Shown piece after piece: positions 12,509 through 58,142 of a DNA stretch of 64,000 nt (position 1 is the stretch's first letter; each line of letters starts with the position of its first letter). The notes below the pieces were generated by a model. It searched no databases. It had not been told where the DNA came from and was given only the letters and a program-made list of their open reading frames with translations. This DNA comes from Longitalea arenae (lineage in GTDB: Bacteria; Bacteroidota; Bacteroidia; Chitinophagales; Chitinophagaceae). Location: the NCBI RefSeq assembly GCF_016924755.1, contig NZ_JAFFJX010000002.1, forward strand, positions 310,001 through 374,000. Direction: 5' to 3'. A program made the position numbers and the translations under genes.

Positions 12509-12794
12509 ATTATAAAGTTTAGCCCCCCAGCCCCCAAAAGAGGCAGCAAGAAGCAGGTTAAAATTATTTTTATTTTACAGACATCCATCAGGCAGATATT
12601 GCCATTTATATTTTGCGTTTTCCGATGGTCTTTATACCTATCGTCGTTCTTCCGCACTTTGCGAACACGCAAACGTCATGATGCACTATACTACTAGTTG
12701 TTTATGCAACTTTCTATACCAAAGTTAAGGATTGCCGGGGGGAAAACAAAATTGCCGGGGATACCGGGTGGCAAGTTCGAGGTTACAGGTTACA

Positions 12795-12923
12795 GGTTAC
12801 AGGTTACAAGTTCCAGGTTACAGGGTGCAGGAAAATTCAGTTCCCGGTTACCGGTTTCCTGTCACCGGGCACAAACCAAAAGCATATTAATTATTGGCTG
12901 CCATGCAGAGATCAGGGCTGGCA
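12795..12923 (+). repeat. 129-bp direct repeat, copy 1
   Basis: Matches 12964-13092 with a single difference (C at 12866, T at 13035), an offset of 169 bp. The unit holds heptamer repeats followed by a unique segment. The near-identity shows a recent duplication. Confidence 0.93.
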
Positions 12924-12963
12924 ACTGGTAAACCGGAGACAGGTTACAGGTTTCAGGGGGTGC

Positions 12964-13092
12964 GGTTACAGGTTACAAGTTCCAGGTTACAGGGTGCAGG
13001 AAAATTCAGTTCCCGGTTACCGGTTTCCTGTCACTGGGCACAAACCAAAAGCATATTAATTATTGGCTGCCATGCAGAGATCAGGGCTGGCA
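12964..13092 (+). repeat. 129-bp direct repeat, copy 2
   Basis: Second copy of the unit at 12795-12923, directly followed by the ggtaactgg-type array that leads to the pyrD promoter. Confidence 0.93.
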
Positions 13093-13254
13093 GTTGGTAA
13101 CCGACAACTGGTAACTGGTAACTGGTAACTGGAAACCGGTAACTGGTAACTGGTAACCGACAACTGGTAACTGGTAACTGGAAACCGGTAACCGGTAACT
13201 GGAAACCGGTAACTGGCAACTGGTGAGTTCATCCCCTTTCCGGCTCCCTGAAAC

Positions 13255-13288
13255 TTGTACCCTGTAACCTGAAACTAATTTATCTTCG
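13255..13288 (+). promoter_or_regulatory. Promoter of pyrD
   Basis: TATCTTCG at 13281-13288 (one mismatch from TAnnTTTG) with TTG at 13255-13257, spacer 23 nt. Only 9 nt separate the box from the ATG at 13298, so the leader would be a few nucleotides at most. Confidence 0.5.
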
Positions 13289-13297
13289 CATCGAATT

Positions 13298-14464
13298 ATG
13301 TACAACTTACTTCGCCGCCTGTTGTTTTGTTTTCCTACAGAAACGGTCCATCATTTTTCCATGAATATGATGAAACTGGGCTGTTCTGTGGGCCCCATCA
13401 GAAAATCCATTTCCGCCCAATGCGCGCCCACTCAGGTCGGCCTGTCAAAAGAGTTGTTTGGCCTCCGGTTTAAAAATCCGGTCGGACTGGCTGCCGGGTT
13501 CGACAAAAATGCACTCTACCTTACCGAGCTGGAAGCCCTGGGTTTTGGCTTTGTGGAGATCGGGACTGTAACGCCCAAACCACAGGCCGGAAATGACAAA
13601 CCCAGGCTGTTCCGCCTGCCCAAAGACAAGGCCCTGATCAATCGCATGGGCTTTAATAATGATGGCGTACAGGTAGTGGCCCAGCGCCTCAAAGACTGGC
13701 GCGAGAAGCAAAGGACAACAAACAACAAGCAATGGCCAGGCGGCAAAATGCAAACTGCCGGCAGTAACAGTTCTCCTTTACATGAGGGTTCCCATTCACC
13801 ATTGACGATTGACCATTTACCGCTGATCATCGGCGGTAACATTGGTAAAAACAAGGTCACGCCCAACGAGGACGCCTGGAAAGACTACGAGATCTGCTTT
13901 CGCGCCCTGTTCGATTGCGTAGATTATTTTGTTGTGAATGTAAGTTCTCCCAATACACCCGGCTTACGGGAATTACAGGAAAAAGATTCCCTCCGCAAGA
14001 TATTATCCCACCTGCAAACCATTAATCAACAGGAAAGCGGCCAACAGGAAAGCGGAGCAGAAACCGATCGCAAGCCTAAACCTATCTTATTAAAAATAGC
14101 CCCCGATCTTACGCCCCAACAGATCGATGATGTAATAGACCTGGCTATGGAAATAAAATTGGATGGACTGGTTGCTACCAACACCACCATCAGTCGGGAG
14201 CAGCTGCAAACAACCGGTGAGCAGCTCGAGTCCATTGGCGCGGGTGGACTAAGTGGTGCGCCGGTGCGCAAACGTTCCACCGAGATCGTTCAATACATAC
14301 ATCAAAAAACAAAAGGGCAACTGCCAGTCATTGCCTCCGGTGGTATTTTTACGGCTGCCGATGCCCGGGAAAAACTCGCCGCCGGTGCTTCCCTGGTGCA
14401 GGTATGGACCGGCTTCATTTATGAAGGCCCGGCTATAGTAAAGAATATTTGTAATGGACTTTAA
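13298..14464 (+). CDS. pyrD: Dihydroorotate dehydrogenase (quinone), class 2, with internal expansions
   Basis: 388 residues; the family is usually about 340. It oxidises dihydroorotate to orotate in pyrimidine synthesis, passing electrons to quinone at the inner membrane. FMN and substrate motifs are clear: LAAGFDKNA at 64-72, GTVTPKPQAGN, RMGFNNDG, IIGGNIGKNK at 177-186, SSPNTPGLR at 216-224, LLKIAPD, ATNTTI, and GASLVQVWTGF. The extra length is in two places. Residues about 136-175, between the helix after RMGFNNDG and IIGGNIGKNK, are low-complexity and partly derived from a short-period tract. Residues 244-253 hold a tandem QQESG duplication. Both sit at likely surface loops, so the enzyme may still work. 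Confidence 0.93.
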   Translation: MYNLLRRLLFCFPTETVHHFSMNMMKLGCSVGPIRKSISAQCAPTQVGLSKELFGLRFKNPVGLAAGFDKNALYLTELEALGFGFVEIGTVTPKPQAGNDKPRLFRLPKDKALINRMGFNNDGVQVVAQRLKDWREKQRTTNNKQWPGGKMQTAGSNSSPLHEGSHSPLTIDHLPLIIGGNIGKNKVTPNEDAWKDYEICFRALFDCVDYFVVNVSSPNTPGLRELQEKDSLRKILSHLQTINQQESGQQESGAETDRKPKPILLKIAPDLTPQQIDDVIDLAMEIKLDGLVATNTTISREQLQTTGEQLESIGAGGLSGAPVRKRSTEIVQYIHQKTKGQLPVIASGGIFTAADAREKLAAGASLVQVWTGFIYEGPAIVKNICNGL

Positions 14465-14670
14465 ATGACCAGTGCGTGACCACCGGAAACTTGCAAAGGG
14501 TCATAAACCCAGCGGGTGATCGAAGGGCTGGCAACCATTTAAATACAAAACGCTAAAATGTTTTGTCTTTAGCTACCACTACATTATTGCCGGTTATTTT
14601 TTTATTCCTGTTGAAACAATTCGGCATATGTTCCTACTAATTAGGCACTGATGCAAAAAGAAAGCATAAC

Positions 14671-14704
14671 CATTGCATATTGCTTATTGCCTGTTGCCAA
14701 TTGG
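14671..14704 (+). repeat. Short-period array upstream of the first terC promoter
   Basis: Degenerate heptamers of the form attgcct / attgcat (cattgcatattgcttattgc and onward) end 10 bp before the -7 box at 14715. The rest of the 14465-14747 gap shows no gene or other feature. Confidence 0.8.
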
Positions 14705-14722
14705 TTTTTCGCCTTATTTTTG
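14694..14722 (+). promoter_or_regulatory. Promoter of the first terC-family gene
   Basis: TTG at 14694-14696 (inside the array), 18-nt spacer, TATTTTTG at 14715-14722. The leader would be about 20 nt. Confidence 0.65.
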
Positions 14723-14747
14723 CCCTTCATTTTTATTACCGACCAAC

Positions 14748-15536
14748 ATGCAAGAATTATTAACTGTAGACGGATTAATCAGCTTACTTACCCTAACGGT
14801 ACTCGAAATTGTATTAGGTATCGATAACGTGATCTTCGTGTCGATATTAATGGGCCGCCTCGATAAAAATCAACAAACGAAAGCCCGCCGTACCTGGATG
14901 ATCGCCGGTATTGCCGTGCGCGTTTGTTTATTAATGGGTATCGGCTGGTTGGTAAAGAACGGGAATGCCCGGCTGTTCGGTTTCGAATTCAGGGGGCACG
15001 ACGCTGCTTTTACCCTGCGCAACCTCATTATGCTGGCCGGAGGTTTGTTCCTATTGTATAAAACAGTAAAAGAGATCCATCATAAACTGGAAGGCGATGA
15101 AGAAATGTATGAAGGCAGCCCGCGTAAGTCATCTTTTGCCGCGGTAATGGCCCAGATCATTATTATTGATATGGTATTTTCTTTCGACAGTATCATTACG
15201 GCGGTGGGTCTTGCCCAGCATGTACCGGTGATGATAACGGCCGTTATCATTGCCATGATCATCATGTTCTTCTTTTCTGATAAAATTGCCAATTTCATCC
15301 ATAAGCATCCCACGCTTAAAATGCTGGCGCTGTCATTTCTGTTAATGGTTGGCTTCAGCCTCTTCTTTGAAGGCCTGGAACCTATACACGAAAGCCATAT
15401 ACAAAAAGGTTATATCTATTTCGCGATGGCCTTTTCGTTTGGCGTTGAATTGCTGAATATGTGGATGCGCAAAAAATCAAAACCGGTGCAGCTGCACGAA
15501 CCCATCGTTAAAAAGGAAGAACAGAAATCGATATAA
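14748..15536 (+). CDS. TerC family integral membrane protein (first copy)
   Basis: 262 residues from the ATG at 14748. The frame is open upstream, but that part covers the promoter and repeat array and is not coding. The family core is clear: LTVLEIVLGIDNVIFVSILMG with the acidic IDN motif, a second VFSFDSIITAVG, and about seven transmembrane helices. TerC proteins are linked to tellurium resistance and, in studied cases, to manganese export and metal loading of exported proteins. The gene stands alone, with its own promoter and terminator. A second, more distant TerC gene is at the right end of the window. Confidence 0.92.
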   Translation: MQELLTVDGLISLLTLTVLEIVLGIDNVIFVSILMGRLDKNQQTKARRTWMIAGIAVRVCLLMGIGWLVKNGNARLFGFEFRGHDAAFTLRNLIMLAGGLFLLYKTVKEIHHKLEGDEEMYEGSPRKSSFAAVMAQIIIIDMVFSFDSIITAVGLAQHVPVMITAVIIAMIIMFFFSDKIANFIHKHPTLKMLALSFLLMVGFSLFFEGLEPIHESHIQKGYIYFAMAFSFGVELLNMWMRKKSKPVQLHEPIVKKEEQKSI

Positions 15537-15551
15537 CCATAAGCAATTGAC

Positions 15552-15597
15552 AACAGGCAATAAGCAGATCATCTTCGCTTATTGCCTGTTTCTTTTA
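15552..15597 (+). terminator. Terminator after the first terC-family gene
   Basis: 14-bp stem aacaggcaataagc / gcttattgcctgtt with an 11-nt loop, followed by tcttttat. Confidence 0.8.
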
Positions 15598-15633
15598 TAT
15601 CAACACTGCTGTCTGGTTATGAAGTGGAAGATT

Positions 15634-15835
15634 GCCAATTGCCCATTGCGAACTGCCCATCGCCCCATTGCCCATTATGTATTGTTAATGCTCCTTTTAA
15701 GGGCCGGGGTTATTGCTCTCTGCTAACTGCCAACTGCCCATTGCCAACTGTGTATTGTTAACGCTCCTTTTAAAAGGCTGGGGTATTGCGAACTGCTAAC
15801 TGCCCCTTGCCAACTGCCTATTTTAAGGCCGTGGT
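15634..15835. repeat. Intergenic repeat field between terC and rsmE
   Basis: Heptamers of the form attgccc / aactgcc alternate with a longer unit that begins tgtattgttaa and contains gctccttttaa. The longer unit is present at 15678 and again at 15751, an offset of 73 bp, with a decayed third copy near 15815. It lies between two convergent genes. Confidence 0.88.
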
Positions 15836-15836
15836 A

Positions 15837-16565
15837 TTATTGCTCGGGGGTTATTGTTTTCAACAACACAGCCGCTACCATGCCGGCCGTTTCACTGCGC
15901 AGGCGGGTATCGCCCAGGCTTACCGGCATAAAATAGTGATCCGTTGCAAAAGTCACTTCTTCGGGTGTAAAATCGCCTTCAGGGCCAATTAAGATAATTT
16001 GAGAAGGAAGAGAAGCATTTACCAGCGCTGCCAGGTTTTGCTTGGAGCCGGGCATACAATGCGCTATGAACTTTTGCGAGGTAGCAATAACTTCTTCCTG
16101 CCTGAGTAACTGCCCGAACCCCACCGGCTGATGTAAAACAGGCAGCCATGCCTGTTGTGATTGCAGCATGGCGCTCACGAGGATCTGTTGCATCCGGTCG
16201 AACCGGAAATGTTCTTTTTCGGTTCTGTCGCAGATCAAAGGTATGATCTCGCTAATGCCGATCTCGGTCGCTTTCTCGAGGAACCATTCAAAACGGCTGC
16301 TGTTTTTTATCAGCGAAATGGCGATGCTGGTTTTACGGTTGGCGGGTGCTACAAACTGTTCTTTCAATACGGTTACACGGCACCGCTTTTTATGATCATC
16401 TGTAATGGCGGTAACTAACAAAAAGCCTTTACCATCGGTCAAATGCAGCTGTTCGCCTTTTTTCATGCGCAATACGTTCACCACATGTTTTGACGTGTCT
16501 TCATCCAGTTCAATGTCCGGCTGGCCGGTTATTACATCCGAAATATAAAAAAGCGGCAGGTTCAT
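15837..16565 (-). CDS. rsmE: 16S rRNA (uracil(1498)-N(3))-methyltransferase
   Basis: 242 residues, normal length. The N-terminal PUA-like part (residues 1-70, KHVVNVLRMKKGEQLHLTDG) and the knotted SPOUT methyltransferase part are present, with the SAM-binding loop IILIGPEGDFTPEE and the conserved SLGDTRLRSETA motif close to the C-terminus. It methylates U1498 of 16S rRNA in the 30S subunit. The stop codon borders the repeat field and no own terminator is seen. Confidence 0.94.
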   Translation of the reverse strand: MNLPLFYISDVITGQPDIELDEDTSKHVVNVLRMKKGEQLHLTDGKGFLLVTAITDDHKKRCRVTVLKEQFVAPANRKTSIAISLIKNSSRFEWFLEKATEIGISEIIPLICDRTEKEHFRFDRMQQILVSAMLQSQQAWLPVLHQPVGFGQLLRQEEVIATSQKFIAHCMPGSKQNLAALVNASLPSQIILIGPEGDFTPEEVTFATDHYFMPVSLGDTRLRSETAGMVAAVLLKTITPEQ

Positions 16566-16612
16566 GATCGGTTCTTTGCTGCAAAGTAATGCATATTATG
16601 TACCATCTAACT

Positions 16613-16643
16613 AACAAAAAGCCCCGGCGGTATCGTCGGGGCT
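16613..16643 (-). terminator. Terminator of dnaB
   Basis: On the minus strand a 10-bp stem (agccccgacg / cgccggggct, one G-T pair) with a 4-nt loop, followed by TTTTTG. Confidence 0.87.
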
Positions 16644-16667
16644 TCTGATAAAAAAGACAATATTGAA

Positions 16668-18251
16668 TTAAAACGGGGCCTCGTCATCATCACCGAACGG
16701 CATATCGTTCATTTTGCTGCCGGCCTGGATGTACAGCCTGGCTCCATCATCGCCACCTGCGCCGGCACTGCCGCCGCCATCAGGTACCGGTTTCCAGCTT
16801 CCGCCACCCATGCCCAGGCCACTGAAATCGTCACCTTCAAACTCAACAAATTTTTGAATATGCAACTGGGCCTTCAGCTTAATGGTTTCCAGCGAACCGT
16901 TACGGTGTTTGGCTATACGCACATGGGTTTCCCCTTTATTGCTTTCTCCCATTTCATTGGAAGTAATGTCATAGTATTCGGGCCGGTAAATAAACATTAC
17001 CATATCGGCATCCTGCTCAATGGCGCCCGATTCACGAAGGTCACTCAGCTGCGGCATTTTATTTCCGTCTTTACGCGTTTCCACCGCACGGCTTAACTGC
17101 GACAAAGCTATGATGGGAACCATCAACTCCTTCGCCAGCATTTTTAAGTTCCGTGAAATGGTACTGATCTCCTGCTCACGATTCGTGTTCTTACCGTTGC
17201 CCACGCCGCTCATCAGCTGTAAGTAATCGATGATGATAAGGCCGATATTGTGTTTGGTCTTCAAACGGCGGCATTTCGCACGCAGCTCGAATACGTTCAG
17301 GGCCGCCGTATCGTCGATAAAGATGGGCGCCTGCGCAAGTTTTTGAATACCCTTGGCGTACAACTGCTTCATCTCATAATCTTCCATCTTACCACGCGAG
17401 ATCTTCTCGAGCCACACTTCACTTTCAGCGCTCAGGATACGTGTTACCAGCTGCGCCGAGCTCATTTCAAGGCTGAAGAAAACGATGGGGGTTGGACGAA
17501 CCGTATTCAATGCCGCATTACGGGCCAGGTTAAGGGCAAATGCCGTTTTACCCACGGCCGGGCGTGCAGCCAGGATGATGAGATCGGAACCCTGCCATCC
17601 ATAGGTTACTTTATCAAGGGAAGGGAAACCGCTTGGCACCCCGGTAATATCATCGGTACGGTGACGCATATCTTCGATCCGCTGTACGGTTTGCACCAGT
17701 ACGGTATCGATACTGTCGTAGTTCTTCTTCATGTGGTTGTTCGTGATCTCGAACAGCTTCGCTTCGGCATCGTCGAGCAGGTCGAACACATCGGCACTGT
17801 CTTCATAAGCGTCACTAATGATCTCACCACTGATCCGGATCAACTCGCGCTGAATGAATTTTTGCAAAATGATCTTTGCATGCGCTTCTATATTGGCTGA
17901 AGAAACAACTGAATTGGTTAAACGGGTTACGTAATAAGGACCACCTACCATTTCCAGCTCTTCTTTGCTGCGCAGTTCTTCCACCACCGTTAAGATGTCT
18001 ATCGGCTGGCTTTTCTGCTGCAGGCTGAGCATAGCCCGGTAAATGCGTTGATGGGCGTCTACATAAAAGCATTCGGCTTTCAAAATTTCCACGGCTACGT
18101 CAAAGGCAGATTTTTCGAGCATGATAGCGCCAAGTACGGCTTCTTCCAGGTCTTTTGCCTGCGGGGGTACTTTACCGTACACCATCGTGCTCAGGTCAAT
18201 TGAACTGCGTCGGCGCTGTTTTCGGTCTTTGTTCAGATTTGTTAAATCCAT
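16668..18251 (-). CDS. dnaB: Replicative DNA helicase DnaB
   Basis: 527 residues. The N-terminal helical domain starts PPQAKDLEEAVLGAIMLEKSAF. The RecA-like ATPase follows, with Walker A ARPAVGKTAFAL (K near residue 235), Walker B LIIIDYLQLM, and the DLRESGAIEQDADMVMFIYR helicase motif. The C-terminal tail (about residues 480-527) is glycine-rich and ends in an acidic stretch, as in other Bacteroidota. It unwinds DNA at the replication fork. It is monocistronic, with a strong terminator, and is preceded by a 735-bp gene-poor region. Confidence 0.95.
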   Translation of the reverse strand: MDLTNLNKDRKQRRRSSIDLSTMVYGKVPPQAKDLEEAVLGAIMLEKSAFDVAVEILKAECFYVDAHQRIYRAMLSLQQKSQPIDILTVVEELRSKEELEMVGGPYYVTRLTNSVVSSANIEAHAKIILQKFIQRELIRISGEIISDAYEDSADVFDLLDDAEAKLFEITNNHMKKNYDSIDTVLVQTVQRIEDMRHRTDDITGVPSGFPSLDKVTYGWQGSDLIILAARPAVGKTAFALNLARNAALNTVRPTPIVFFSLEMSSAQLVTRILSAESEVWLEKISRGKMEDYEMKQLYAKGIQKLAQAPIFIDDTAALNVFELRAKCRRLKTKHNIGLIIIDYLQLMSGVGNGKNTNREQEISTISRNLKMLAKELMVPIIALSQLSRAVETRKDGNKMPQLSDLRESGAIEQDADMVMFIYRPEYYDITSNEMGESNKGETHVRIAKHRNGSLETIKLKAQLHIQKFVEFEGDDFSGLGMGGGSWKPVPDGGGSAGAGGDDGARLYIQAGSKMNDMPFGDDDEAPF

Positions 18252-19235: not shown

Positions 19236-19350
19236 TCACTCCTCCTGCTTACCCCCCGTCTGGCCATCCTTCCGCCCGGCCTGCACTGCCTTCCCCAACT
19301 GTCTTCACCTGAAAACATTGAACTACAATTGCAAACCGGCAACTGTGCAC

Positions 19351-19377
19351 TTTGAACTTTGAACTAACCTATCTTTG
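19351..19377 (+). promoter_or_regulatory. Promoter of pheT with upstream heptamer array
   Basis: TATCTTTG at 19370-19377, a perfect -7 match, directly preceded by a short actttga array (tttgaactttgaac at 19351-19364) whose units resemble the -33 TTTG. The leader would be about 30 nt. Confidence 0.6.
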
Positions 19378-19414
19378 CCACCATCGTTAAATTATAAAAT
19401 TTATAGACTGATCC

Positions 19415-22167: not shown

Positions 22168-22172
22168 GAGGT

Positions 22173-22457
22173 TCAAATCCTTTTAACGAGACGCATTTTC
22201 ATTTCATCATTGCCCTGCGAGAGCTCGAGGGTATAAACACCATAAGGCAGGTCGTTCAGGCCTTTCCAGGTAACTGATTTATCACCCTGGGGAATATTGG
22301 TTTCGAACCGGCTGCATTCATAACCCCGTTCATCGCGTAAAATGGCTTTCAGGCTCGACTGGATGGGTGCGATGAACTCCAGTGTAAGCGCGTCGATGAA
22401 GACGTTCGACCTTAGTTTAGCGAACATGGTAATCGTTTGGTTTTGGTGAGTAATCAT
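22173..22457 (-). CDS. Orphan protein resembling a type IX sorting domain
   Basis: 94 residues (84 if the second ATG at 22427 is used). There is no signal peptide. The whole protein follows the pattern of a type A type IX secretion C-terminal domain: VFIDALTLEFIAPIQSSLKA, then LRDERGYE, and GLNDLPYGVYTLELSQGN followed by MRLVKRI at the end. Such domains normally sit at the end of large exported proteins; here it is the complete gene. It is antisense to its neighbours, between the coiled-coil gene and zapA. Function unknown. It may be a small beta-sandwich protein that acts in the cytoplasm, or a remnant of a larger gene. Confidence 0.7.
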   Translation of the reverse strand: MITHQNQTITMFAKLRSNVFIDALTLEFIAPIQSSLKAILRDERGYECSRFETNIPQGDKSVTWKGLNDLPYGVYTLELSQGNDEMKMRLVKRI

Positions 22458-22567
22458 AGCATACGATAATTTGCATTATTACCATCCAAAACGATCCTTT
22501 TGAAGCCCGGAAGTATTCCTGATGTGTGTGAATAAAAATAGAACAAGCTTTTCAAAATTGCAAGCCC

Positions 22568-22858
22568 ATGGAAGAATTAATTCCCATTAATGTTTTAATA
22601 GGCGACCGAACATACCGCATTCGTATAGCCCCTACCGATGAAGAAGTGGTACGAAAGACGCTGAAGTTGATCAACGACAAGATCCTGGAGTTTAAAACCA
22701 CCTTTGCCGGCAAGGATATGCAGGATTATGTAGCCATGGTGGTTCTATGGTATGCCACCCAGCAAAAAGCCGGCGACAGCCAGCCCTTGGTAGATAACCA
22801 GACCTCCGAACAGTTACAGGCCATGGAGAAGTTGCTTGACAGGATGTTAGTTGATTGA
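22568..22858 (+). CDS. zapA: Cell division protein ZapA
   Basis: 96 residues, normal length. The ZapA pattern is clear: INVLIGDRTYRIRIAPTDEE at the start, the helix VVRKTLKLINDKILEFKTTF, then DYVAMVVLWYA and a C-terminal coiled coil (SEQLQAMEKLLDRML). ZapA cross-links FtsZ filaments at the division ring. The position before rny and after pheT with a coiled-coil gene is a plausible division cluster. Confidence 0.92.
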   Translation: MEELIPINVLIGDRTYRIRIAPTDEEVVRKTLKLINDKILEFKTTFAGKDMQDYVAMVVLWYATQQKAGDSQPLVDNQTSEQLQAMEKLLDRMLVD

Positions 22859-22972
22859 GTCACCAGTTACCGGTTCCCGGTTCCCGGGCTCAATACCCGG
22901 GAAGCCAGATAATTATCAGCACTCCGGAACAGGTACCCGGCAACTGGCGACTGGTAACCGGTGACTGATCCT
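22857..22972. repeat. Imperfect inverted repeat after zapA
   Basis: agtcaccagttacc at 22857 pairs with ggtaaccggtgact at 22957-22970 with one mismatch, and the interior holds ggttcccggttcccggg and a second cccggg arm. The units are of the same ggtaactgg type as the array before pyrD. It may end the zapA transcript. The rest of the 22859-23184 gap carries the rny promoter and leader. Confidence 0.7.
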
Positions 22973-24750: not shown

Positions 24751-24813
24751 TAAAAAAATGCAGTAAAACCGGGTGGTTTCGGAAATTAAAAATGATTAAT
24801 TCGATTTTTTAAT

Positions 24814-24821
24814 TAACTTTG
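24814..24821 (+). promoter_or_regulatory. -7 box of rplS
   Basis: TAACTTTG, perfect match, 21 nt before the ATG. Its final TTG happens to be in frame with rplS and makes a false upstream start. Confidence 0.6.
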
Positions 24822-24842
24822 CCTCCCCAAAATTTGAATGTC

Positions 24843-28451: not shown

Positions 28452-29778
28452 ATTTATCACCCAAAACCTTTTTTATGGCAGCCGCCTTTAACAGGCATTC
28501 TTCATATTCCTTCGCAGGATCGCTGTAAAATGTAATGGCCGAACCGGCCTGGAAAGCGAGGTACTGGCTGGCAGCATTGTACATTATGCTGCGGATCACC
28601 ACATTGAAATCAAAATCGCCTTCCGGGGTAATATACCCTAATGCGCCGGAGAAAATGCCGCGCCGGGTTTGTTCATATTGCTCAATCAGTTCCATGACCC
28701 TTCGCTTAGGCGCACCAGTCATAGAACCCATGGGGAATGTTGCTTTAATTGCTTCTATAAAATGAATATCGCTGCGCAGCTGTCCACTAACGGTCGAGAT
28801 CATCTGATGCACCTGCGGAAAGCTGTAAATGCCAAACAATTCGTCTACCTGCACCGATGCTTCCTCGCAGATCTTCGACAGATCGTTGCGCACCAGGTCA
28901 ACGATCATTACATTTTCTGAACGGTCTTTTGCACTATTATACAGATCCTCTTTATGTTTCACATCTTTGCGGGCATCATGCAGGTCACGCTGGGAAGTGC
29001 CCTTGATCGGCTGTGAATAAATGCGCCTTCCCTCCTTCTTAAGATAGCGCTCAGGACTGGCACAAAGCAGATACTGTTGTCCGCTTTTATAATAAGCGGC
29101 AAATGGATTGGGTGAAGTATCGCTTAATGAGCAGTAGACCTGCAAAGGATCAATGGTTACCGATGTGGCAAAGAATTCCTGGCAGAAATTGATCTCATAA
29201 CAATCGCCCCGCAGAATATGCTGCTGTAATTGCCGGATGGTTTCAAGATAATCCGCTTTGCTGATGCGGTTGTTGATGGGTGTTGTTAATGCCTGCGCCA
29301 TTGCCTCAAAGGGCTCAATTGCACAGATGGCTTGAAAAACAGTTTCATGCCGGCCACCGAATGTACCGATCAGCAGCGCATCTTCGCTTAGTTGCAGTAA
29401 AACTTCGGGAATAAAAAAACAAAGGTCCGGGAAACCAAGATGATCGGTATTGGAACTGGTAAGGCCTTCTGTTTCATTCTTGAGATCATAGCTTAGATGG
29501 CCAAAAAGCCAGTCGCGGTTTTGTTCATACAGCTGCTGCAACTGATCAAATGCAGTACCGGCCGCAGTTGCAAGGGTTTGTACAGCCCCTGCCGCAGCCA
29601 TACATTCAAAGCTATGATGCGGTAAATGATAATGTTGGTTGTCGAGAAAACAACAAATGTTGAACTGGTTGGCCCAGCTCAACATTTGTAACTTGGTTCG
29701 CTGAAAATCAGCGATGGGAAATGATATGTATTGTCTGCGCACTGTGGAAACAGGGTGAGCAGTAAAAGAAGTAACCAC
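28450..29778 (-). CDS. pabB: Aminodeoxychorismate synthase component I
   Basis: 442 residues of the chorismate-binding family. The motif is PIKGT, with the lysine that marks PabB, where anthranilate synthase TrpE has PIAGT. Other blocks are VDLVRNDLSKICE, TFPMGSMTGAPKRRVMELIE and GIFSGALGYITPEGDFDFNV. It makes 4-amino-4-deoxychorismate for folate synthesis. The GTG start at 29778 overlaps the stop codon of the preceding acidic-protein gene by one base (TAGTG), so the two are probably translationally coupled. No pabA or pabC is adjacent. Confidence 0.9.
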   Translation of the reverse strand: MVTSFTAHPVSTVRRQYISFPIADFQRTKLQMLSWANQFNICCFLDNQHYHLPHHSFECMAAAGAVQTLATAAGTAFDQLQQLYEQNRDWLFGHLSYDLKNETEGLTSSNTDHLGFPDLCFFIPEVLLQLSEDALLIGTFGGRHETVFQAICAIEPFEAMAQALTTPINNRISKADYLETIRQLQQHILRGDCYEINFCQEFFATSVTIDPLQVYCSLSDTSPNPFAAYYKSGQQYLLCASPERYLKKEGRRIYSQPIKGTSQRDLHDARKDVKHKEDLYNSAKDRSENVMIVDLVRNDLSKICEEASVQVDELFGIYSFPQVHQMISTVSGQLRSDIHFIEAIKATFPMGSMTGAPKRRVMELIEQYEQTRRGIFSGALGYITPEGDFDFNVVIRSIMYNAASQYLAFQAGSAITFYSDPAKEYEECLLKAAAIKKVLGDK

Positions 29779-30239: not shown

Positions 30240-30333
30240 TGTCTGGTAAGATTGTGTTTGTAAAATTTCAGCGAAGTTTTTAATTCGCCAAATTTTTTAA
30301 ATAATTTTTCAATCAAAAAATCCGAAGTGAAAA

Positions 30334-31633: not shown

Positions 31634-31641
31634 CAAAAATA
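31634..31641 (-). promoter_or_regulatory. -7 box of purA
   Basis: TATTTTTG on the minus strand, 34 nt before the ATG. The array at 31657-31692 lies 15 bp further upstream. Confidence 0.55.
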
Positions 31642-31656: not shown

Positions 31657-31692
31657 GAGATTTTGAGATTTTGGGATTTTGAGATTTTGGTA
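31657..31692. repeat. Short-period array upstream of purA
   Basis: Four to five degenerate units of gattttga / gattttgg (gagattttgggattttgaga and flanks). Confidence 0.85.
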
Positions 31693-31862
31693 TTTTTCTT
31701 CTCTGCAAAACCCAAGATCAAAGTACCAATACCGCGCTGCCTAGGTATGTAGATCTCAGGTACTTCGAAATCTTGAATTATACCATCGAAGCTTTTGACC
31801 ATATCTAAAATAGAACAATCGAAGCAGCAGATTTTGCGATTTATCTAAAAATCCCAAAATCA

Positions 31863-31914
31863 TATATCCGCGAAATCAGAAATCACGAAATCAGAAATCC
31901 CGAAATCAGAATTC
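31863..31914. repeat. Short-period array near the 3' end of the RelA/SpoT gene
   Basis: Units of gaaatcac / gaaatcag / gaaatccc. Read on the other strand they are close to the gattttgg units before purA, so the two arrays face each other across about 170 bp and could pair. Nothing else is recognised in the 31600-31921 gap. Confidence 0.82.
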
Positions 31915-31921
31915 ATAAATA

Positions 31922-46577: not shown

Positions 46578-46598
46578 ATTTATTTACAATAGCTAGCG

Positions 46599-51891: not shown

Positions 51892-52031
51892 TCAAAAAAG
51901 TTTATACCTTTAAGTCAGTTTTCATAGGGTACGGATTAAAAACGGGCCAGGGTGTCTACCCAGGCCCAACTTTTTTTAAGGACATACTGTCGCAAATTCA
52001 GGTCTTTCTCCCTCCTTATTTATAATATTTT

Positions 52032-52673: not shown

Positions 52674-52705
52674 GCTGCTATCCTCTGCGACAAAAATAAC
52701 TGAAA

Positions 52706-53638: not shown

Positions 53639-53642
53639 ATGG

Positions 53643-53673
53643 TAAATATACAGGTAAGCTGAGCAAGTGTCAA
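53643..53673 (-). promoter_or_regulatory. Promoter of the DUF6569-deacetylase operon
   Basis: On the minus strand TTG at 53671-53673, 20-nt spacer, TATATTTA at 53643-53650 (one mismatch). The box ends 4 nt before the ATG. Confidence 0.5.
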
Positions 53674-53701
53674 GTCTGATGGCGTAGTTGCGGATGCTCA
53701 A

Positions 53702-53740
53702 TTAGTCAACCGATCAACTTGTCAACTTTTCAACTTCTTG
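53702..53740. repeat. Short-period array in the gltX promoter
   Basis: Units of gtcaacc / gatcaactt / gtcaactttt / caacttc. The array contributes the -33 TTG of gltX. Confidence 0.75.
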
Positions 53741-53748
53741 TATCTTTG
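53719..53748 (+). promoter_or_regulatory. Promoter of gltX
   Basis: TTG at 53719-53721, 19-nt spacer, TATCTTTG at 53741-53748. The box ends 5 nt before the ATG, so the message is probably leaderless. Confidence 0.7.
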
Positions 53749-53753
53749 GGCCT

Positions 53754-55295
53754 ATGTCTAAAAAAGTACGGGTACGATTCGCGCCTAGTCCAACCGGCGG
53801 CCTTCATTTGGGAGGGGTAAGAACTGTTCTATACAATTATTTGTTTGCCCGCCAGCAGGGCGGTGATTTTGTTTTGCGTATCGAAGATACCGATCAAAGC
53901 CGCTATGTGCCGGGGGCCGAAGAATACATTTATGAATGTTTACAATGGTGCAGGCTGCAACCGGATGAAAGCCCGCAGGCTGGTGGTCCTTATGCGCCTT
54001 ACCGGCAAAGCGAACGTAAAGCGCTGTACAGGCAGTATGCTGAATTTTTAGTGCAGGAAGGAAAAGCCTATTATGCATTCGACCGGCCCGAAGAACTGGA
54101 ATCGATGCGCGAACGGTTTAAAACAGCCGAAAATCCTTCACCCCAATACGATCACAAAGTAAGGCAGCAAATGCGCAATTCCTGCGCCCTTACATTTGAA
54201 GAGACCGAGCGCTTACTGGCAGATAATGTTCCTCATGTTATTCGCATCAGGATGCCGGAAAACGAAACAGTGACCTTTACCGATATGATCCGCGGTGAAG
54301 TCAGCTTCAATACCAGCCTGGTTGATGATAAAGTGTTATTGAAAGCCGATGGTATGCCTACTTATCATCTCGCAGTGGTTGTAGACGATTACCTGATGAA
54401 AATAACCCATGCCTTCAGGGGAGAAGAATGGCTGCCCAGTTCGCCTGTACATATCTTATTATGGAAATACCTGGGTTGGGAAAAAGAGATGCCGCAATGG
54501 GCGCACCTGCCTTTGATCTTAAAACCCGATGGCAATGGTAAATTAAGTAAACGGGATGGAGACCGCCTGGGCTTCCCGGTATTTGCCATGAACTGGACCA
54601 CCAAAAAAGAAGACGGCAGTGAAGAATTGACCAAGGGCTTTCGGGAAATGGGATTTTTGCCGGAAGCATTTATCAATATGCTGGCCATGCTGGGCTGGAA
54701 CGACGGTACCGACCAGGAACTGTTCACGCTGGATGAATTAATAGAAAAGTTTTCTATAGACCGCGTGCATAAAGGCGGCGCCAAGTTCGACTTTGAAAAA
54801 GCCAAATGGTTCAACCATGAATGGATCAAGAGATCGGATGCAGCGTATTTGCGGCCTGATGTAAAAAGAATCTTCCAGGAGCAGGGCATTCAAGTCAATG
54901 ATGATGCGTTACTCGAAAGAGTGATCGCCCTGGTGAAAGAAAGATGCACCTTATTAACCGATTTTGTTGAGCAGTCAAAATTCTTTTTCCAAACCCCGCA
55001 ACAGTGGGACCTGGCGGCCATTCAACCCAAATGGAATGAAGCGAAGCAGGCATTTTTTACAGAGGTGATCAGTTACCTGCAGCAGCAAAATAATTGGGTG
55101 GCAGCAGACCTTGAACAGGGATTTAAAGAGCTGGCCGCTGCCAAACAGATTAAACCGGGCGATGTACTGTTACCACTGCGTATAATGCTGGTAGGTGGCA
55201 AGTTTGGTCCCGGCGTATTTGACATCGCCGGCATTCTTGGGAAAGAAGAGACGGTAAACAGAATTAAAAAGGTGCTGGAGCAATTGCAGAAATAG
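53754..55295 (+). CDS. gltX: Glutamate--tRNA ligase
   Basis: 513 residues. The class I motifs are present: FAPSPTGGLHLGGVRT (HIGH-like site near residue 18) and KLSKR at 263-267 (KMSKS-like). The glutamate-specific region LRIEDTDQSRYV and the C-terminal anticodon-binding helical domain follow. In organisms with GatA this enzyme may be non-discriminating and also charge tRNA(Gln), which would then be amidated; gatA is in the same window. A terminator follows. Confidence 0.96.
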   Translation: MSKKVRVRFAPSPTGGLHLGGVRTVLYNYLFARQQGGDFVLRIEDTDQSRYVPGAEEYIYECLQWCRLQPDESPQAGGPYAPYRQSERKALYRQYAEFLVQEGKAYYAFDRPEELESMRERFKTAENPSPQYDHKVRQQMRNSCALTFEETERLLADNVPHVIRIRMPENETVTFTDMIRGEVSFNTSLVDDKVLLKADGMPTYHLAVVVDDYLMKITHAFRGEEWLPSSPVHILLWKYLGWEKEMPQWAHLPLILKPDGNGKLSKRDGDRLGFPVFAMNWTTKKEDGSEELTKGFREMGFLPEAFINMLAMLGWNDGTDQELFTLDELIEKFSIDRVHKGGAKFDFEKAKWFNHEWIKRSDAAYLRPDVKRIFQEQGIQVNDDALLERVIALVKERCTLLTDFVEQSKFFFQTPQQWDLAAIQPKWNEAKQAFFTEVISYLQQQNNWVAADLEQGFKELAAAKQIKPGDVLLPLRIMLVGGKFGPGVFDIAGILGKEETVNRIKKVLEQLQK

Positions 55296-55322
55296 TATAC
55301 CAGGATATACTTAAAATAAAAT

Positions 55323-55358
55323 GAGGGTCAGCTGTAGAAGGTGACCCTCTTTTTCTTT
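55323..55358 (+). terminator. Terminator of gltX
   Basis: 8-bp stem gagggtca / tgaccctc, 11-nt loop, then ttttttcttta. Confidence 0.85.
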
Positions 55359-55365
55359 ATTATGG

Positions 55366-55785
55366 TTAGAAGCTTCTATGTGTTACGACCCAGTCGGCAA
55401 TATAGGAAGCGATCTCGGTAGTAGGTGTTCCCGGCGCAAATAATTTTCCCACGCCCATAGCATTTAACTGCTGCATATCTTCTTCGGGAATAATGCCGCC
55501 ACCGGTCAATAATACATCGTCCATTCCCTTTTCCTTCATCAAGGCTACCACTTTAGGAAAAACGGTCATATGGGCGCCGGAGAGAATACTGATGCCAATG
55601 GCATCCACATCTTCCTGTAAAGCCGCATTCACCACCATTTCAGGGGTTTGCCGCAACCCGGTATAAATAACCTCCATACCGGCATCCCGTAAGGCCGTAG
55701 CAATTACCTTGGCGCCCCGGTCGTGCCCGTCGAGCCCAACCTTGGCCACCAGCACCCGCAGGGGGCGATTTACTTTCTGAGTCAT
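55366..55785 (-). CDS. Cobalamin (B12)-binding domain protein, methylmalonyl-CoA mutase C-terminal type
   Basis: 139 residues from the ATG at 55785. The B12-binding signature DGHDRGAKV (DxHxxG), ISILSGAH (SxL) and TGGGIIP are all present. It is equivalent to the C-terminal domain of methylmalonyl-CoA mutase as a separate small subunit, used in split mutases such as the isobutyryl- or ethylmalonyl-CoA type. The catalytic large subunit is not in this window. An upstream in-frame TTG at 55806 belongs to the -7 box. Confidence 0.9.
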
Positions 55786-55803
55786 GCAAGCAACATTTAG
55801 GTT

Positions 55804-55811
55804 CAAAAATA
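55804..55811 (-). promoter_or_regulatory. -7 box of the B12-binding subunit gene
   Basis: TATTTTTG on the minus strand, 18 nt before the ATG; no clear -33. Confidence 0.5.
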
Positions 55812-56001
55812 CGGTTCTTTGGCATACATTGAAGCCTGCCTTATGCGCGAGTACGCTTTTGTCGGCCAGCCCGGCTGCCTCAATATCACAGCCTTAAAAT
55901 CACCTATTTACTTTAGATTTACAATACCATCAAAGCACCTGCTGCAGGTGTGCGATAATGATAGGTAAATAACGAATTCAAACTGAATTAAAACCTGTAA
56001 C

Positions 56002-56778
56002 ATGTATACTGCCATCACTACATCTTTAGAAAATGCTATTCTGCTCATTACGATCAACCGGCCCGATAAGATGAATGCGTTGAATAAAACCGTTCTCGAT
56101 GAATTGAACAGCGCCATCGATGAAGTATATAGCAATCATGCGGTGCGGTCGGCGATCATCACGGGCGCCGGCGCGAAAGCCTTTGTGGCCGGCGCTGATA
56201 TCAGTGAGTTCCAGGGCTTGAAACACAATGAAGGAATGGACCTGGCGCACAAGGGCCAGTATATTTTTAAGAAGATCGAAGATGCGCCCAAACCTGTTAT
56301 TGCTGCCGTAAACGGATTTGCCCTGGGCGGTGGCTGCGAACTGGCCATGGCCTGTCATTTCAGGCTGGCTTCCGAGAATGCCCGTTTTGGCCAGCCCGAA
56401 GTGAACCTGGGCCTCATTCCCGGCTATGGCGGCACCCAGCGCCTCACCCAGCTGATCGGCAAAGGAAGAGCGATAGAATTGCTTATCACCGGCAATATGC
56501 TCGATGCGGCTACGGCGCTGCAGTACGGACTGGTCAATTATGTGGTGCCGCAGGAAGAATTACTTCCCAAAGCAAAGTCGATCCTCGAGCTGGTAAATAC
56601 GAAAGCGCCATTGGCCGTTGGGCGCTGTATCAAAGCCGCCAACGCCGTTTTTGATCATACTAAAGATGGATTTACTGAAGAAGTGAAGCTCTTCGGCGAA
56701 TGCTTTTCCACCCAGGATATGATCGAGGGAACTACCGCATTTTTGGAAAAAAGGAAGCCGAATTTTCAGGGGAAATAA
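56002..56778 (+). CDS. Enoyl-CoA hydratase/isomerase
   Basis: 258 residues, crotonase fold. The oxyanion-hole segment KAFVAGADISEF and both catalytic glutamates are present, E113 in GGGCELAMA and E133 in GQPEVNLGLIPGYGGTQR. This supports true hydration of trans-2-enoyl-CoA in beta-oxidation or a related pathway. It stands alone between the B12-binding gene (divergent) and the LacI-type regulator gene. Confidence 0.93.
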   Translation: MYTAITTSLENAILLITINRPDKMNALNKTVLDELNSAIDEVYSNHAVRSAIITGAGAKAFVAGADISEFQGLKHNEGMDLAHKGQYIFKKIEDAPKPVIAAVNGFALGGGCELAMACHFRLASENARFGQPEVNLGLIPGYGGTQRLTQLIGKGRAIELLITGNMLDAATALQYGLVNYVVPQEELLPKAKSILELVNTKAPLAVGRCIKAANAVFDHTKDGFTEEVKLFGECFSTQDMIEGTTAFLEKRKPNFQGK

Positions 56779-56783
56779 GGTCA

Positions 56784-56887
56784 ATGTGCTGATGTGCTGA
56801 TGTGCTGATGTGCTGATTTGCTAATCATAGCTGCCATGTAACTTTGATTCCATTAGCACATTAGCAAATCAGCAAATTATCACATTA
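56784..56887. repeat. 8-bp tandem repeat with inverted counterpart
   Basis: Four perfect copies of atgtgctg (56784-56815) and a fifth, altered copy. gctgatttgctaat at 56812-56825 has its perfect complement attagcaaatcagc at 56860-56873, so a hairpin with a 34-bp loop can form. It lies between the hydratase stop and the regulator promoter. Confidence 0.9.
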
Positions 56888-56893
56888 GATTCC

Positions 56894-56938
56894 GCAATCG
56901 TTTGCTTACTTATCTTAAGGGTACATTGTTTATCTTCG
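56894..56938 (+). promoter_or_regulatory. Promoter and candidate operator of the LacI-family gene
   Basis: TATCTTCG at 56931-56938 is a -7 box (one mismatch), with TTTG at 56901-56904 about 26 nt upstream. gcaatcgtttgc at 56894-56905 is a 12-bp near-palindrome centred on CG, as LacI-family operators usually are, and covers the TTTG. Confidence 0.5.
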
Positions 56939-56950
56939 GTACCACACTGT

Positions 56951-57964
56951 ATGGAAAAGAAACTCCCCACCATAAAGGAAATCGCCCGCCGCCTGAATAT
57001 TTCAGCTTCTACTGTATCCCGTGCCCTACACGATCATCCCAGTATTGGCCTTCGCACCAAAATGGCGGTAAAGAAACTGGCTGCCGAACTGAATTACGAA
57101 CCCAACCAAACTGCCATCTTCTTTAAGCAGCGCAAAACGTTTACGATCGGACTGGTAATACCCAACCTGCGGGAGGAATTCTTTTCCGCCGCCATCAATG
57201 GCATTGAGGATGTAGCGCTCGATCACAATTATATTGTGCTCATCGGTCAATCGCACGATGACCTGGCGCGTGAACAAAAGCTGGTGGAAAGTATGAAGAA
57301 CCATCGCGTTGATGGCATCATTGCCTCCATCAGCAGCAGCACCACGCATATTGAGCATTTTGAACAAATGAAGAATTACGAAATTCCAGTCGTATTCTTC
57401 GACCGCGTGCCCGATGCCAAAGACATTCATTCTGTAAGCTGCAATTTGTACGACAGTTCCGTGGAAGCCGTGGAATGGCTTATAAAAAAAGGACATAAAC
57501 GCATTGCGTACCTGCAGGGGCCGCCTACCCTGAACATGAAGAATGAAAGGCTCGACGGGTATATGGAAGCGCACAAGAAACACAAACTCCCCGTTGATGA
57601 ATCGCTGATCGTAAGTACCGACCTGTCGGTGGAAGGCACTAAAAAAGCATTTGATGCTTTAATGCAGCTTAAAAAACGCCCAACCGCCATCCTTTCCTTC
57701 AATGATTATGTTACCCTCGACGCCATTCACTATGCCCGGCAAAAAAAACTGACCATCAATAAAGACATTTGCTTTGTAAGTTATGCCAATGTGCCGGTAA
57801 CCCAGTACGTTGAATATCCGCCGCTGGCCTCGGTAGAGCAGTTCCCCTATGACCAGGGTGTGAGCGCCACCGAGCTGCTTTTCCGCCTGATTGAGAAAAA
57901 AACCTCCCGCCAGGAAGCGCCTTACGAAAACATTGTGCTTAAAAGTGAACTTATCATCCGGTAA
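56951..57964 (+). CDS. LacI family transcriptional regulator
   Basis: 337 residues. The N-terminal helix-turn-helix (TIKEIARRLNISASTVSRAL) and hinge (LAAELNYEPN) are typical, followed by a periplasmic-binding-like sensor domain (TIGLVIPNLREEFFSAAING, VFFDRVPD, GHKRIAYLQGPP, SFNDYVTLDAI). It represses or activates genes in response to a sugar-like ligand. No sugar genes are adjacent, so the target may be elsewhere. An operator-like site overlaps its own promoter. Confidence 0.94.
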   Translation: MEKKLPTIKEIARRLNISASTVSRALHDHPSIGLRTKMAVKKLAAELNYEPNQTAIFFKQRKTFTIGLVIPNLREEFFSAAINGIEDVALDHNYIVLIGQSHDDLAREQKLVESMKNHRVDGIIASISSSTTHIEHFEQMKNYEIPVVFFDRVPDAKDIHSVSCNLYDSSVEAVEWLIKKGHKRIAYLQGPPTLNMKNERLDGYMEAHKKHKLPVDESLIVSTDLSVEGTKKAFDALMQLKKRPTAILSFNDYVTLDAIHYARQKKLTINKDICFVSYANVPVTQYVEYPPLASVEQFPYDQGVSATELLFRLIEKKTSRQEAPYENIVLKSELIIR

Positions 57965-58000
57965 ATAAGGGTTATCAGGTAAGGAGTGCGATTTCTTTTA

Positions 58001-58134
58001 ACGAGTTACAGGTTACAGGTCGCAGGTTGCAGGGCCCGCATTCCTGAACGCAGCATAAAATTCCGCAAACTGATCTATTGAAGAAAGCTTGAAATTAGCG
58101 AACCGGTAACCGGGAACTGGTAACCGGAAACGTG
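58001..58134. repeat. Short-period repeats upstream of fumC
   Basis: ttacaggttacaggtcgcaggttgcagg at 58004-58032 and aaccggtaaccgggaactggtaaccggaaac at 58101-58131, the same unit type as before pyrD. The second array touches the fumC -7 box. Confidence 0.85.
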
Positions 58135-58142
58135 TATTTTTG
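58135..58142 (+). promoter_or_regulatory. -7 box of fumC
   Basis: TATTTTTG, perfect match, 15 nt before the ATG at 58158. Confidence 0.6.

What the first reader, a model, noticed from the sequence alone, without database searches (positions are those of the whole stretch)
12777..58142. Short-period intergenic arrays end at the -7 boxes of many housekeeping promoters
Degenerate tandem arrays with a 7-8 bp period lie immediately upstream of the -7 box in front of pyrD (13100-13270), terC (14671-14704), pheT (19351-19364), purA (31657-31692), gltX (53702-53740) and fumC (58101-58131). Each locus has its own motif, so they are not copies of one element; the position is what is shared. Several units contain TTG or TTTG, the -33 core, so an array may offer the sigma factor several alternative -33 contacts, or act as a spacer that evolves by slippage. 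I know of no described function for this layout.
Basis: partly seen in the sequence, partly recalled or inferred. Interest (0 to 1): 0.72.

Follow-up and report, generated by a model that had tools for sequence, protein, structure and literature searches.

The report
Genus-wide short-unit repeat arms between genes
Niastella bacteria carry hundreds of short repeat arrays with 7- or 8-letter units, mostly between genes and often facing each other in inverted pairs; they fill free space up to promoters and gene ends, and whole repeat families appear or vanish genome by genome, so something acting across the genome may make or spread them.

Summary
The arrays are real. In 840 kb of this Niastella genome, intergenic self-similarity occurs at lags 7 and 8 (61 and 58 segments), none at lags 2-6; coding DNA has 3 and 0. 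Each cited locus has an array 3-16 bp from a -7 box (pyrD only a weak one).

The reading changes. In this genome arrays are densest between convergent genes and abut stop codons more clearly than -7 boxes; about 10% lie within 30 bp of a box. They are not locus-unique but belong to roughly ten genome-wide families (GTTNCCR, ATTGCCN, ATTSACC, ATTAKCAM, GATTTYGR). Arms mostly face each other: GT-rich left, AC-rich right. Sister species refill the same gaps with other families beside an unchanged -7 box (gltX, purA, pheT). Whole families are present or absent per genome; one family's spelling changed genome-wide at least twice, matching (by eye) the arms upstream of a single-copy Y1 (RAYT-like) gene in 10 of 10 genomes. 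Unit order is not shared between loci; neighbouring units are alike; variation sits in fixed unit columns.

Best explanation: trans-seeded repeat elements that grow locally in tolerant DNA and stop at genes and promoters. The -33-contact idea is not supported. Function is untested.

The parts
12780..12831 (+). 7-bp array GGTTACA (strand given = strand on which the arm is GT-rich), faces the 13095 array
12969..13000 (+). second GGTTACA arm inside a 169-bp tandem duplication (12795-13100)
13095..13224 (-). 7-bp array TGGTAAC upstream of pyrD, inverted relative to 12780
   Evidence: fold
13247..13275 (-). short weak 7-bp array CCTGAAA next to the pyrD box
   Evidence: score 30
13281..13288 (+). 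pyrD -7-like box TATCTTCG
13792..13821 (-). ATTSACC-type array inside the pyrD coding sequence; loop of varying length and filling in sister species, shortest in G009
14672..14698 (+). 7-bp array ATTGCNN upstream of terC
14715..14722 (+). terC -7 box TATTTTTG
   Evidence: orthologs
15631..15750 (.). 7-bp arrays ATTGCCC and CTGCCAA between convergent genes
19342..19365 (.). 7-bp array AACTTTG upstream of pheT
19370..19377 (+). pheT -7 box TATCTTTG
   Evidence: orthologs
22859..22964 (.). inverted element starting right after a stop codon; left arm array 22859-22887
   Evidence: fold of 22855-22970, z -6.00
31634..31641 (-). purA -7 box TATTTTTG
   Evidence: orthologs
31657..31696 (+). 8-bp array GAGATTTT beside the purA promoter
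31871..31915 (-). inverted partner arm CGAAATCAGAAATCA at the other end of the purA gap
53645..53739 (.). gltX inverted element; right arm 8-bp array TCAACTNN at 53706-53736
   Evidence: (z -3.07)
53741..53748 (+). gltX -7 box TATCTTTG
   Evidence: orthologs
56784..56825 (+). 8-bp array ATGTGCTG, left arm starting 5 bp after a stop codon
56851..56887 (-). 8-bp array CATTAGCA, right arm of the same hairpin
   Evidence: z -5.41
58005..58033 (+). 7-bp array GTTACAG, left arm in the fumC gap
58100..58131 (-). 7-bp array AACCGGT, right arm beside the fumC promoter
58135..58142 (+). fumC -7 box TATTTTTG
   Evidence: orthologs

Best explanation
The arrays are arms of a class of intergenic repeat elements: degenerate tandem arrays with a 7- or 8-bp unit, often in inverted pairs, the GT-rich strand mostly running 5' to 3' towards the middle of the gap. 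Each genome has roughly ten unit families (count by eye). Shown: neighbouring units are alike, as local tandem duplication would give; unit order is not shared between loci; the same gaps ('slots') are occupied in sister species, with change of family; whole families and one spelling differ genome-wide. Inferred: a trans-acting, family-specific factor seeds or maintains the units at many sites and tandem duplication lengthens them. Arrays end at -7 boxes and stop codons because selection removes what goes further, not because they are promoter parts. For the ATTS(A/M)C(C/G) family the best candidate factor is a single-copy Y1 HUH (RAYT-like) protein (inferred, about 35%).
For: Lags 7/8 stand out, almost only intergenic, repeated in held-out and second-species DNA. 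Stop adjacency 37/111, 22/55, 17/36 against null 11.4, 7.6, 3.7. Polarity: left GT-rich 44:12, right AC-rich 54:26; held-out 14:9 and 30:9; G005 15:7 and 10:7. Inverted partner 68 against direct 46 of 132; 31 against 14 of 61; 25 against 9 of 40. Slots: where the own gap has an array, 35 of 64 ingroup ortholog gaps have one; where an own gap of at least 150 bp has none, 9 of 90. Family change beside fixed boxes. Column-specific variation shared by loci: GTTACCG set columns 4 and 7 in 34/40 arrays each, columns 1 and 5 in 3 and 4; ATTCACC column 4 in 10/10. Local growth z -6.95. Shared 24-mers between loci 131 against unit-shuffled mean 134. ATTAGCAC pattern 135, 131, 132, 93, 44, 25 in six genomes, 5, 0, 0, 0 in four. 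ATTSACC|ATTSMCG matches: G000 219|8, G001 280|7, G003 60|18, G006 134|37, G007 343|32; G002 30|414, G004 3|190, G005 1|61; G008 61|71; G009 2|1. Y1 upstream arms, classed by eye: ACC in the first five, MCG in the next three, mixed in G008 (read after its counts), none in G009. G002 and G006 are sisters on a purA tree, so at least two changes.
Against: Whole-gap RNA folding is not generally stronger in array gaps (medians with/without: -0.87/-0.84, -0.79/-0.51, -0.97/-0.10 (p 0.006), -1.05/-1.67). Arms match their own partner no better than other same-family arms (percentile 0.46, p 0.27), so a functional stem is not shown. About half the arrays have no detected inverted partner. Masked gaps show a fourfold higher rate of similarity between array gaps (11 of 9730 pairs) than between others (52 of 191890), so some copying is not excluded. 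Column specificity is weaker in the ATTGCCA set (columns 5, 6, 7 vary in 11, 11, 19 of 27). Pattern counts are overlapping matches: one array gives 14 of the 61 in G005, and the backward control of ATTSACC hits 40 times in G000 and 109 in G001, probably because it spells part of the GTTACCA family. No factor is identified for most families. Y1: both arms lie upstream; of 28 out-of-genus homologues read (out of 76 non-genus genomes with a hit) two had 7-bp arrays upstream, G108 and G119; the ACTSAC family of the G119 flank (86 matches) is also in G004 87, G005 163, G009 123, G084 25 and G123 10, none with it at this Y1 gene; the pyrD loop of G002 is ACC-like against its genome. Polarity is weaker in G005.
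Confidence: 0.6

Rival explanations
1. Promoter part: arrays supply alternative -33 contacts or a slippage-tuned spacer upstream of the -7 box.
For: Arrays lie 3-16 bp from boxes at the cited loci; excess at gap <=15 bp, P 0.001 in the discovery set, 0.045 in G005.
Against: Held-out P 0.23 at <=15 bp and 0.056 at <=30 bp; densest between convergent genes in the own genome; TTG at spacing 18-21 in 2 of 6 loci; no sharp TTG peak in 13 array promoters; arrays beside stop codons and inside pyrD.
Confidence: 0.1
2. Plain minisatellites: polymerase slippage or unequal exchange on chance seeds in unconstrained DNA, 7 bp being favoured by the replication machinery (proposal of Mrazek 2007 as cited in PMC4679880).
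For: Neighbouring units alike, 169-bp duplication at 12795-13100, a long nearly perfect array in slot 9 of G005, rarity in coding DNA.
Against: Same unit families at unrelated loci and in other genera, column-specific variation, genome-wide presence/absence and spelling change, polarity.
Confidence: 0.2
3. 3'-end RNA hairpins (terminators or mRNA stabilisers), as proposed for REP elements.
For: Arrays start right after stop codons; three elements chosen by eye fold strongly, z -5.4, -6.0, -3.1.
Against: 16 of 94 divergent gaps, which have no 3' end, carry arrays; no general folding excess; in slot 9 some species seem to carry a separate terminator-like hairpin between the arms (by eye).
Confidence: 0.15
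4. Telomerase-like templated repeat addition (compare DRT10, PMC12632851): an RNA-templated enzyme adds GT-rich 7/8-nt repeats to broken 3' ends, then the ends are rejoined head to head.
For: Fixed unit length, genome-wide spelling, GT-rich strand pointing inward; an RVT_1 protein of similar length in each of the nine genus genomes searched (orthology not tested).
Against: No RVT_1 match in array-bearing G022, G075, G081, G123, G160; unique sequence between arms; units duplicate locally; the DRT10 product is protein-primed cDNA.
Confidence: 0.05
5. REP-like elements moved by the Y1/RAYT-like protein, for all families.
For: 10 of 10 genus genomes concordant for one family; a second conserved Y1 (about 200 aa) has no array within about 260 bp on either side in 7 of 7 genomes.
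Against: One such gene against roughly ten families; G009 has the gene but other families; no shared unit order; exceptions.
Confidence: 0.12

Closest known systems
TAACTGA heptamer direct repeats (MacGregor 2015, PMC4679880; abstract, sections 3, 12, 24 and passages read)
   Same: 7-bp unit, intergenic, in Beggiatoaceae, Cyanobacteria and five Bacteroidetes, close to starts; arrays up to 43 copies in some; other heptamer repeats noted in the same gaps and relatives lacking them noted; forward upstream of starts and in one case reverse right after a stop, which fits the polarity seen here.
   Different: One motif studied and no genome-wide families; no inverted-arm rule, replacement of family in orthologous gaps or genome-wide spelling change in the parts read; here units of 7 and 8 bp.
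Heptanucleotide-rich long simple sequence repeats (Mrazek 2007, known only through PMC4679880 section 3)
   Different: Survey; no polarity, pairing or orthologous slots in the passage read.
Cyanobacterial STRR heptamers (name in search listings; motif details only recalled)
   Same: Dispersed short tandem repeats.
   Different: Not compared here by sequence.
REP/RAYT and REPIN elements (PMC2817692, PMC3116915; passages read)
   Same: Dispersed inverted repeats and a single-copy Y1 gene beside one family.
   Different: Arms are tandem 7-mers; both arms lie on one side of the Y1 gene.
DRT10 tandem-repeat cDNA synthesis (PMC12632851; passages read)
   Same: Short fixed-length repeats set by a trans template.
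   Different: cDNA with 9-nt repeats in the Eco3 system; no chromosomal arrays in the passages read; RVT_1 not found in five array-bearing genomes.

Membership tests
[quoted passage not shown]
   An inverted pair exists in nine of ten genomes but both arms are upstream; no array in the 137-257 nt downstream in ten
REP/RAYT system | REP with GT(A/G)G head and short palindrome | tested here: inconclusive
   Arms are 7-bp tandem units; heads looked for by eye only
REP/RAYT system | Single-copy Y1 HUH protein | tested here: met
   PF01797 E 1.1e-21; one strong hit in each of ten genus genomes; DHMH motif
Heptamer tandem repeats (LSSR/TAACTGA/STRR kind) | Tandem arrays with a 7-bp unit, many per genome | tested here: met
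   (with an equal class of 8 bp in this genome)
Heptamer tandem repeats (LSSR/TAACTGA/STRR kind) | Mostly intergenic | tested here: met
   lag 7/8: 61/58 intergenic, 3/0 coding
Bacteroidetes promoter with -7 TAnnTTTG and -33 TTG | -7 box at the cited loci | tested here: met
   5 of 6 exact, pyrD TATCTTCG; five seen conserved across species; no transcription data
Bacteroidetes promoter with -7 TAnnTTTG and -33 TTG | -33 TTG supplied by the array | tested here: not met
   TTG at spacing 18-21 in 2 of 6
DRT10/telomerase-like system | Reverse transcriptase present wherever the repeats are | tested here: not met
   No RVT_1 match in five array-bearing genomes
Intrinsic terminator | Stem followed by T-run at transcript 3' ends | not tested
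   No terminator scan run; arrays also in 16 of 94 divergent gaps

The most novel reading that the evidence does not exclude
Chitinophagaceae harbour an undescribed class of intergenic elements built of oriented 7/8-bp unit arrays whose unit spelling is set genome-wide by a trans-acting, family-specific factor (an HUH/Y1 protein or a templating RNA). The factor writes or maintains the same degenerate word at hundreds of independent sites; when it changes or is lost, the word changes or disappears across the genome.
Probability: 0.35. Interest if true: 0.85.

Novelty: new variant of a known kind. Interest (0 to 1): 0.6.

Why it matters
Heptamer repeats have been noted in bacteria without an agreed mechanism. 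A genus in which unit families and one spelling change genome-wide, beside orthologous promoter cores that stay fixed, makes the question testable: compare close strains, find the factor, watch new arrays form. It also warns against reading arrays at -7 boxes as promoter elements, and suggests that promoter cores here tolerate replacement of the DNA directly upstream.

Tried and rejected
Whole-gap RNA folding z-scores: no general excess in array gaps; my null was a Markov resample of varying composition on up to 400 nt, so the test is weak. Mirror copying of arms: own partner no better than other same-family arms. Copy-paste between loci: no excess of shared unit order; masked similarity rare but four times as frequent among array gaps. 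Shared loop core: AATACA in 13 of 131 inner flanks, mostly beside one 8-bp family; not general. Telomerase-like RT: not consistent. Second Y1 gene: no arrays. -33 supply: not supported.

Literature: nine searches, of which only the top rows are listed. In those rows I saw no title or abstract on inverted heptamer arms, family replacement in orthologous gaps or genome-wide spelling change in Chitinophagaceae; the library lacks most subscription papers. Passages or sections were read in PMC4679880, PMC12632851, PMC2817692 and PMC3116915; the rest are listings.

Limits: gene calls are from my own simple caller with approximate starts. Statistics use 1.24 Mb of the 7.28-Mb genome and 0.4 Mb of G005. 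One genome per species, so no strain variation. Exact-pattern counts miss degenerate arrays. The class of the Y1 arms and the number of families are by eye.
Full report
What was checked. The window is bases 310001-374000 of contig C22 of a 7.28-Mb genome. By gltX similarity the closest named relatives are Niastella and Longitalea, family Chitinophagaceae. In 840 kb of the genome the gaps of at least 60 bp (512 gaps, 140.8 kb) hold 61 segments at lag 7 and 58 at lag 8, none at lags 2-6 and 5 at lag 9; 693 kb of coding DNA hold 3 and 0. Held-out own DNA (C11 400-800 kb) gives 29 and 24, and the first 400 kb of G005, another species, 21 and 12; there lags 9 and 11 follow with 3 and 4, and 6 and 4. 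Over 80 gltX loci (1.41 Mb) the pooled counts are 54 at lag 7, 17 at lag 8 and at most 7 at the other lags from 5 to 12.

Promoter boxes. The six boxes exist, five as TAnnTTTG and pyrD as TATCTTCG. At gltX a TAnnTTTG box near the start is kept across the Niastella relatives read while the adjacent array differs: TCAACTNN-like in own, N. soli, N. caeni, N. yeongjuensis and the right part of OAS944; ATTAGCAC-like in Longitalea and N. populi; none called in N. vici, Paraflavitalea, Pseudoflavitalea and BIN41 (by the same threshold N. caeni and N. populi also count zero, their arrays being seen by eye). purA keeps TATTTTTG in the nine species of the slot table, with a GATTTTGA-type array in six (own, G007, G001, G009, G005, G004) and other sequence in G006, G002 and G003. 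pheT keeps TATCTTTG with different arrays. fumC keeps TATTTTTGCGCAAATTTTA in the seven ingroup species; its arrays are of GTTACC type where present. Arrays lie within 15 bp upstream of the last TAnnTTTG box in 11 of 31 cases (null 3.9), 5 of 15 held-out (null 3.6, P 0.23), 2 of 4 in G005 (null 0.4); within 30 bp 13, 8 and 3 (null 6.2, 5.4, 0.8). The totals of arrays are 137, 64 and 44, so most arrays are not at such boxes.

Stop codons and gene context. Within 12 bp of a stop: 37 of 111 (null 11.4), 22 of 55 (7.6), 17 of 36 (3.7). Within 12 bp of a called start: 10 of 105 (8.6), 12 of 44 (4.7), 2 of 34 (3.3). Array share of gap bases between convergent genes is 8.3, 7.9 and 3.2%; in the other three contexts 3.4-3.9, 2.4-6.4 and 1.5-3.5%. 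So convergent gaps are highest in both own sets, but in G005 one tandem context (3.5%) is slightly higher.

Anatomy. Arms are mostly oriented: left half of a gap GT-rich 44 against 12 AC-rich, right half AC-rich 54 against 26; held-out 14:9 and 30:9; G005 15:7 and 10:7. Inverted partners in the same gap beat 20 shuffles in 68 of 132 arrays (direct 46), 31 of 61 (14), 25 of 40 (9). Three window elements chosen by eye fold well (z -5.41, -6.00, -3.07), but array gaps as a class do not, and partners are not specially matched. Paired arms in the window: 12780/13095, 31657/31871, 56784/56851, 58005/58100.

Families and column rule. Units fall into shared families. In the GTTACCG set (40 arrays in 28 gaps) columns 4 and 7 vary in 34 arrays each, columns 1 and 5 in 3 and 4, columns 2, 3 and 6 in 14, 9 and 9; in ATTCACC (10 arrays) column 4 varies in all ten and the others in 0-2; in ATTAGCAC (49 arrays) columns 3 and 8 vary in 36 and 46, columns 1, 2 and 6 in 0-3; in ATTGCCA (27 arrays) the contrast is weaker. 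Arrays were admitted by similarity to a seed, which limits variation but does not choose the column; the GTTACCG and GTTACAG sets can share arrays. Adjacent units are more alike than permuted ones (1.424 against 1.684, z -6.95). Unit order is not shared between gaps beyond shuffles (16- to 32-mers: 461, 291, 131, 51, 22 against 458, 283, 134, 52, 20).

Slots. Of 32 window gaps with orthologs, nine hold arrays in the own genome. Their ingroup orthologs hold arrays in 35 of 64 cases; orthologs of array-free own gaps of at least 150 bp in 9 of 90, and of shorter ones in 9 of 79 (outgroups and double entries left out; species are related, so cases are not independent). Gaps such as 22428-22567, 24751-24842, 29686-29777 and 30240-30333 hold none in any species read. 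In the gap 56779-56950 called arrays are own 2, N. caeni 2, Longitalea 1, N. yeongjuensis 1, and none in N. soli, N. vici and OAS944; at a lower threshold N. soli and OAS944 show one each, with several different unit families. A coding case: a loop of pyrD holds ATTSACC-type units in own, G007 and G001 (own and G007 with one ACG unit), ATTCACG units in G005, CGGCAAT in G004, a degenerate ACC-like stretch in G002, almost nothing in G006, and is shortest in G009; G003 and G008 gave no readable loop. Direction of change was not tested.

Genome-wide change. RTTNCCR x3 occurs in 10 of 10 genus genomes (34 to 690 matches) and in 8 of 29 others with 1-9. A related pattern is in 35 of 147 family genomes, and the 8-bp ATTAKCAN pattern in 13 of 147. 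In the genus the latter counts 135, 131, 132, 93, 44, 25, 5, 0, 0, 0 (G008, one of the zeros, is 61% complete). ATTSACC against ATTSMCG: G000 219|8, G001 280|7, G003 60|18, G006 134|37, G007 343|32, G002 30|414, G004 3|190, G005 1|61, G008 61|71, G009 2|1. These are overlapping matches; one array gives 14 of the 61 in G005, and the backward control of the first pattern is not zero in G000 (40) and G001 (109), probably because it spells part of the GTTACCA family. The gap upstream of a single-copy Y1_Tnp gene (PF01797) holds, by eye, ACC-type arms in the first five (with single ACG units in G003 and G007, and a degenerate right arm in G001), MCG-type in the next three, a mixture in G008 and no array in the 300 nt upstream in G009. 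On a purA tree G002 and G006 are sisters (support 1.0), so the spelling changed at least twice. This may mark the Y1 protein as the factor, or only show that this slot follows its genome's vocabulary; the slot carried no other family in the genus. Against the Y1 reading: both arms on one side; of 28 out-of-genus homologues read only G108 and G119 have 7-bp arrays upstream; G119 fits with 86 ACTSAC matches, but G004 87, G005 163, G009 123, G084 25 and G123 10 have that family without it at this gene; and one gene stands against roughly ten families. A second conserved Y1 gene is array-free in 7 of 7 genomes.

Conclusion. The arrays are oriented, often paired repeat arms that occupy tolerant DNA, bounded by genes and promoter cores. 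They belong to the known kind of heptamer repeats (PMC4679880) and differ by paired polarity, family replacement in orthologous slots, and genome-wide family and spelling changes that point to a trans-acting factor. The function, if any, is untested.

Noticed in passing
L162 4265..4693 (own genome G000:C40:99265-99690) and orthologs: Single-copy Y1/RAYT-like HUH protein in all ten genus genomes, after a chorismate-mutase-like gene (name by eye), with inverted 7-bp arms upstream in nine of ten.
   Followed up: yes
L225 2490..4004 (own genome G000:C2, minus strand): RVT_1 protein of about 504-529 aa; a match of similar length in each of the nine genus genomes searched and in G108 and G015. Class and orthology not determined.
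   Followed up: partly
window 13700-13830: PyrD has a loop that differs in length between species and is partly filled by heptamer-like sequence in frame.
   Followed up: partly
window 53741-53754: The gltX -7 box starts 13 nt before the start codon, so the mRNA may be leaderless; 5 of 13 array promoters have box-to-start distances of 13-23 nt.
   Followed up: no
L153 (G005), ortholog of window gap 15537-15836: A nearly perfect TTCTGCC/TTCTACC array of roughly 30 units in G005 looks like a recent expansion.
   Followed up: no
window 12795-13100: 169-bp tandem duplication (97% match) containing an array arm and its loop.
   Followed up: no
own genome C22 and C11, inner flanks of arrays: AATACA (GAAATACA, GGAATACA) recurs just inside arms, mostly of the ATTAGCAC family: 13 of 131 inner flanks, 5-fold over background.
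   Followed up: partly
L248 (G004:C28): A third Y1-like reading frame is short in G004 (51 aa), with a 16-bp TATTGCC repeat right after its stop; the G009 relative (L247) is 189 aa.
   Followed up: no
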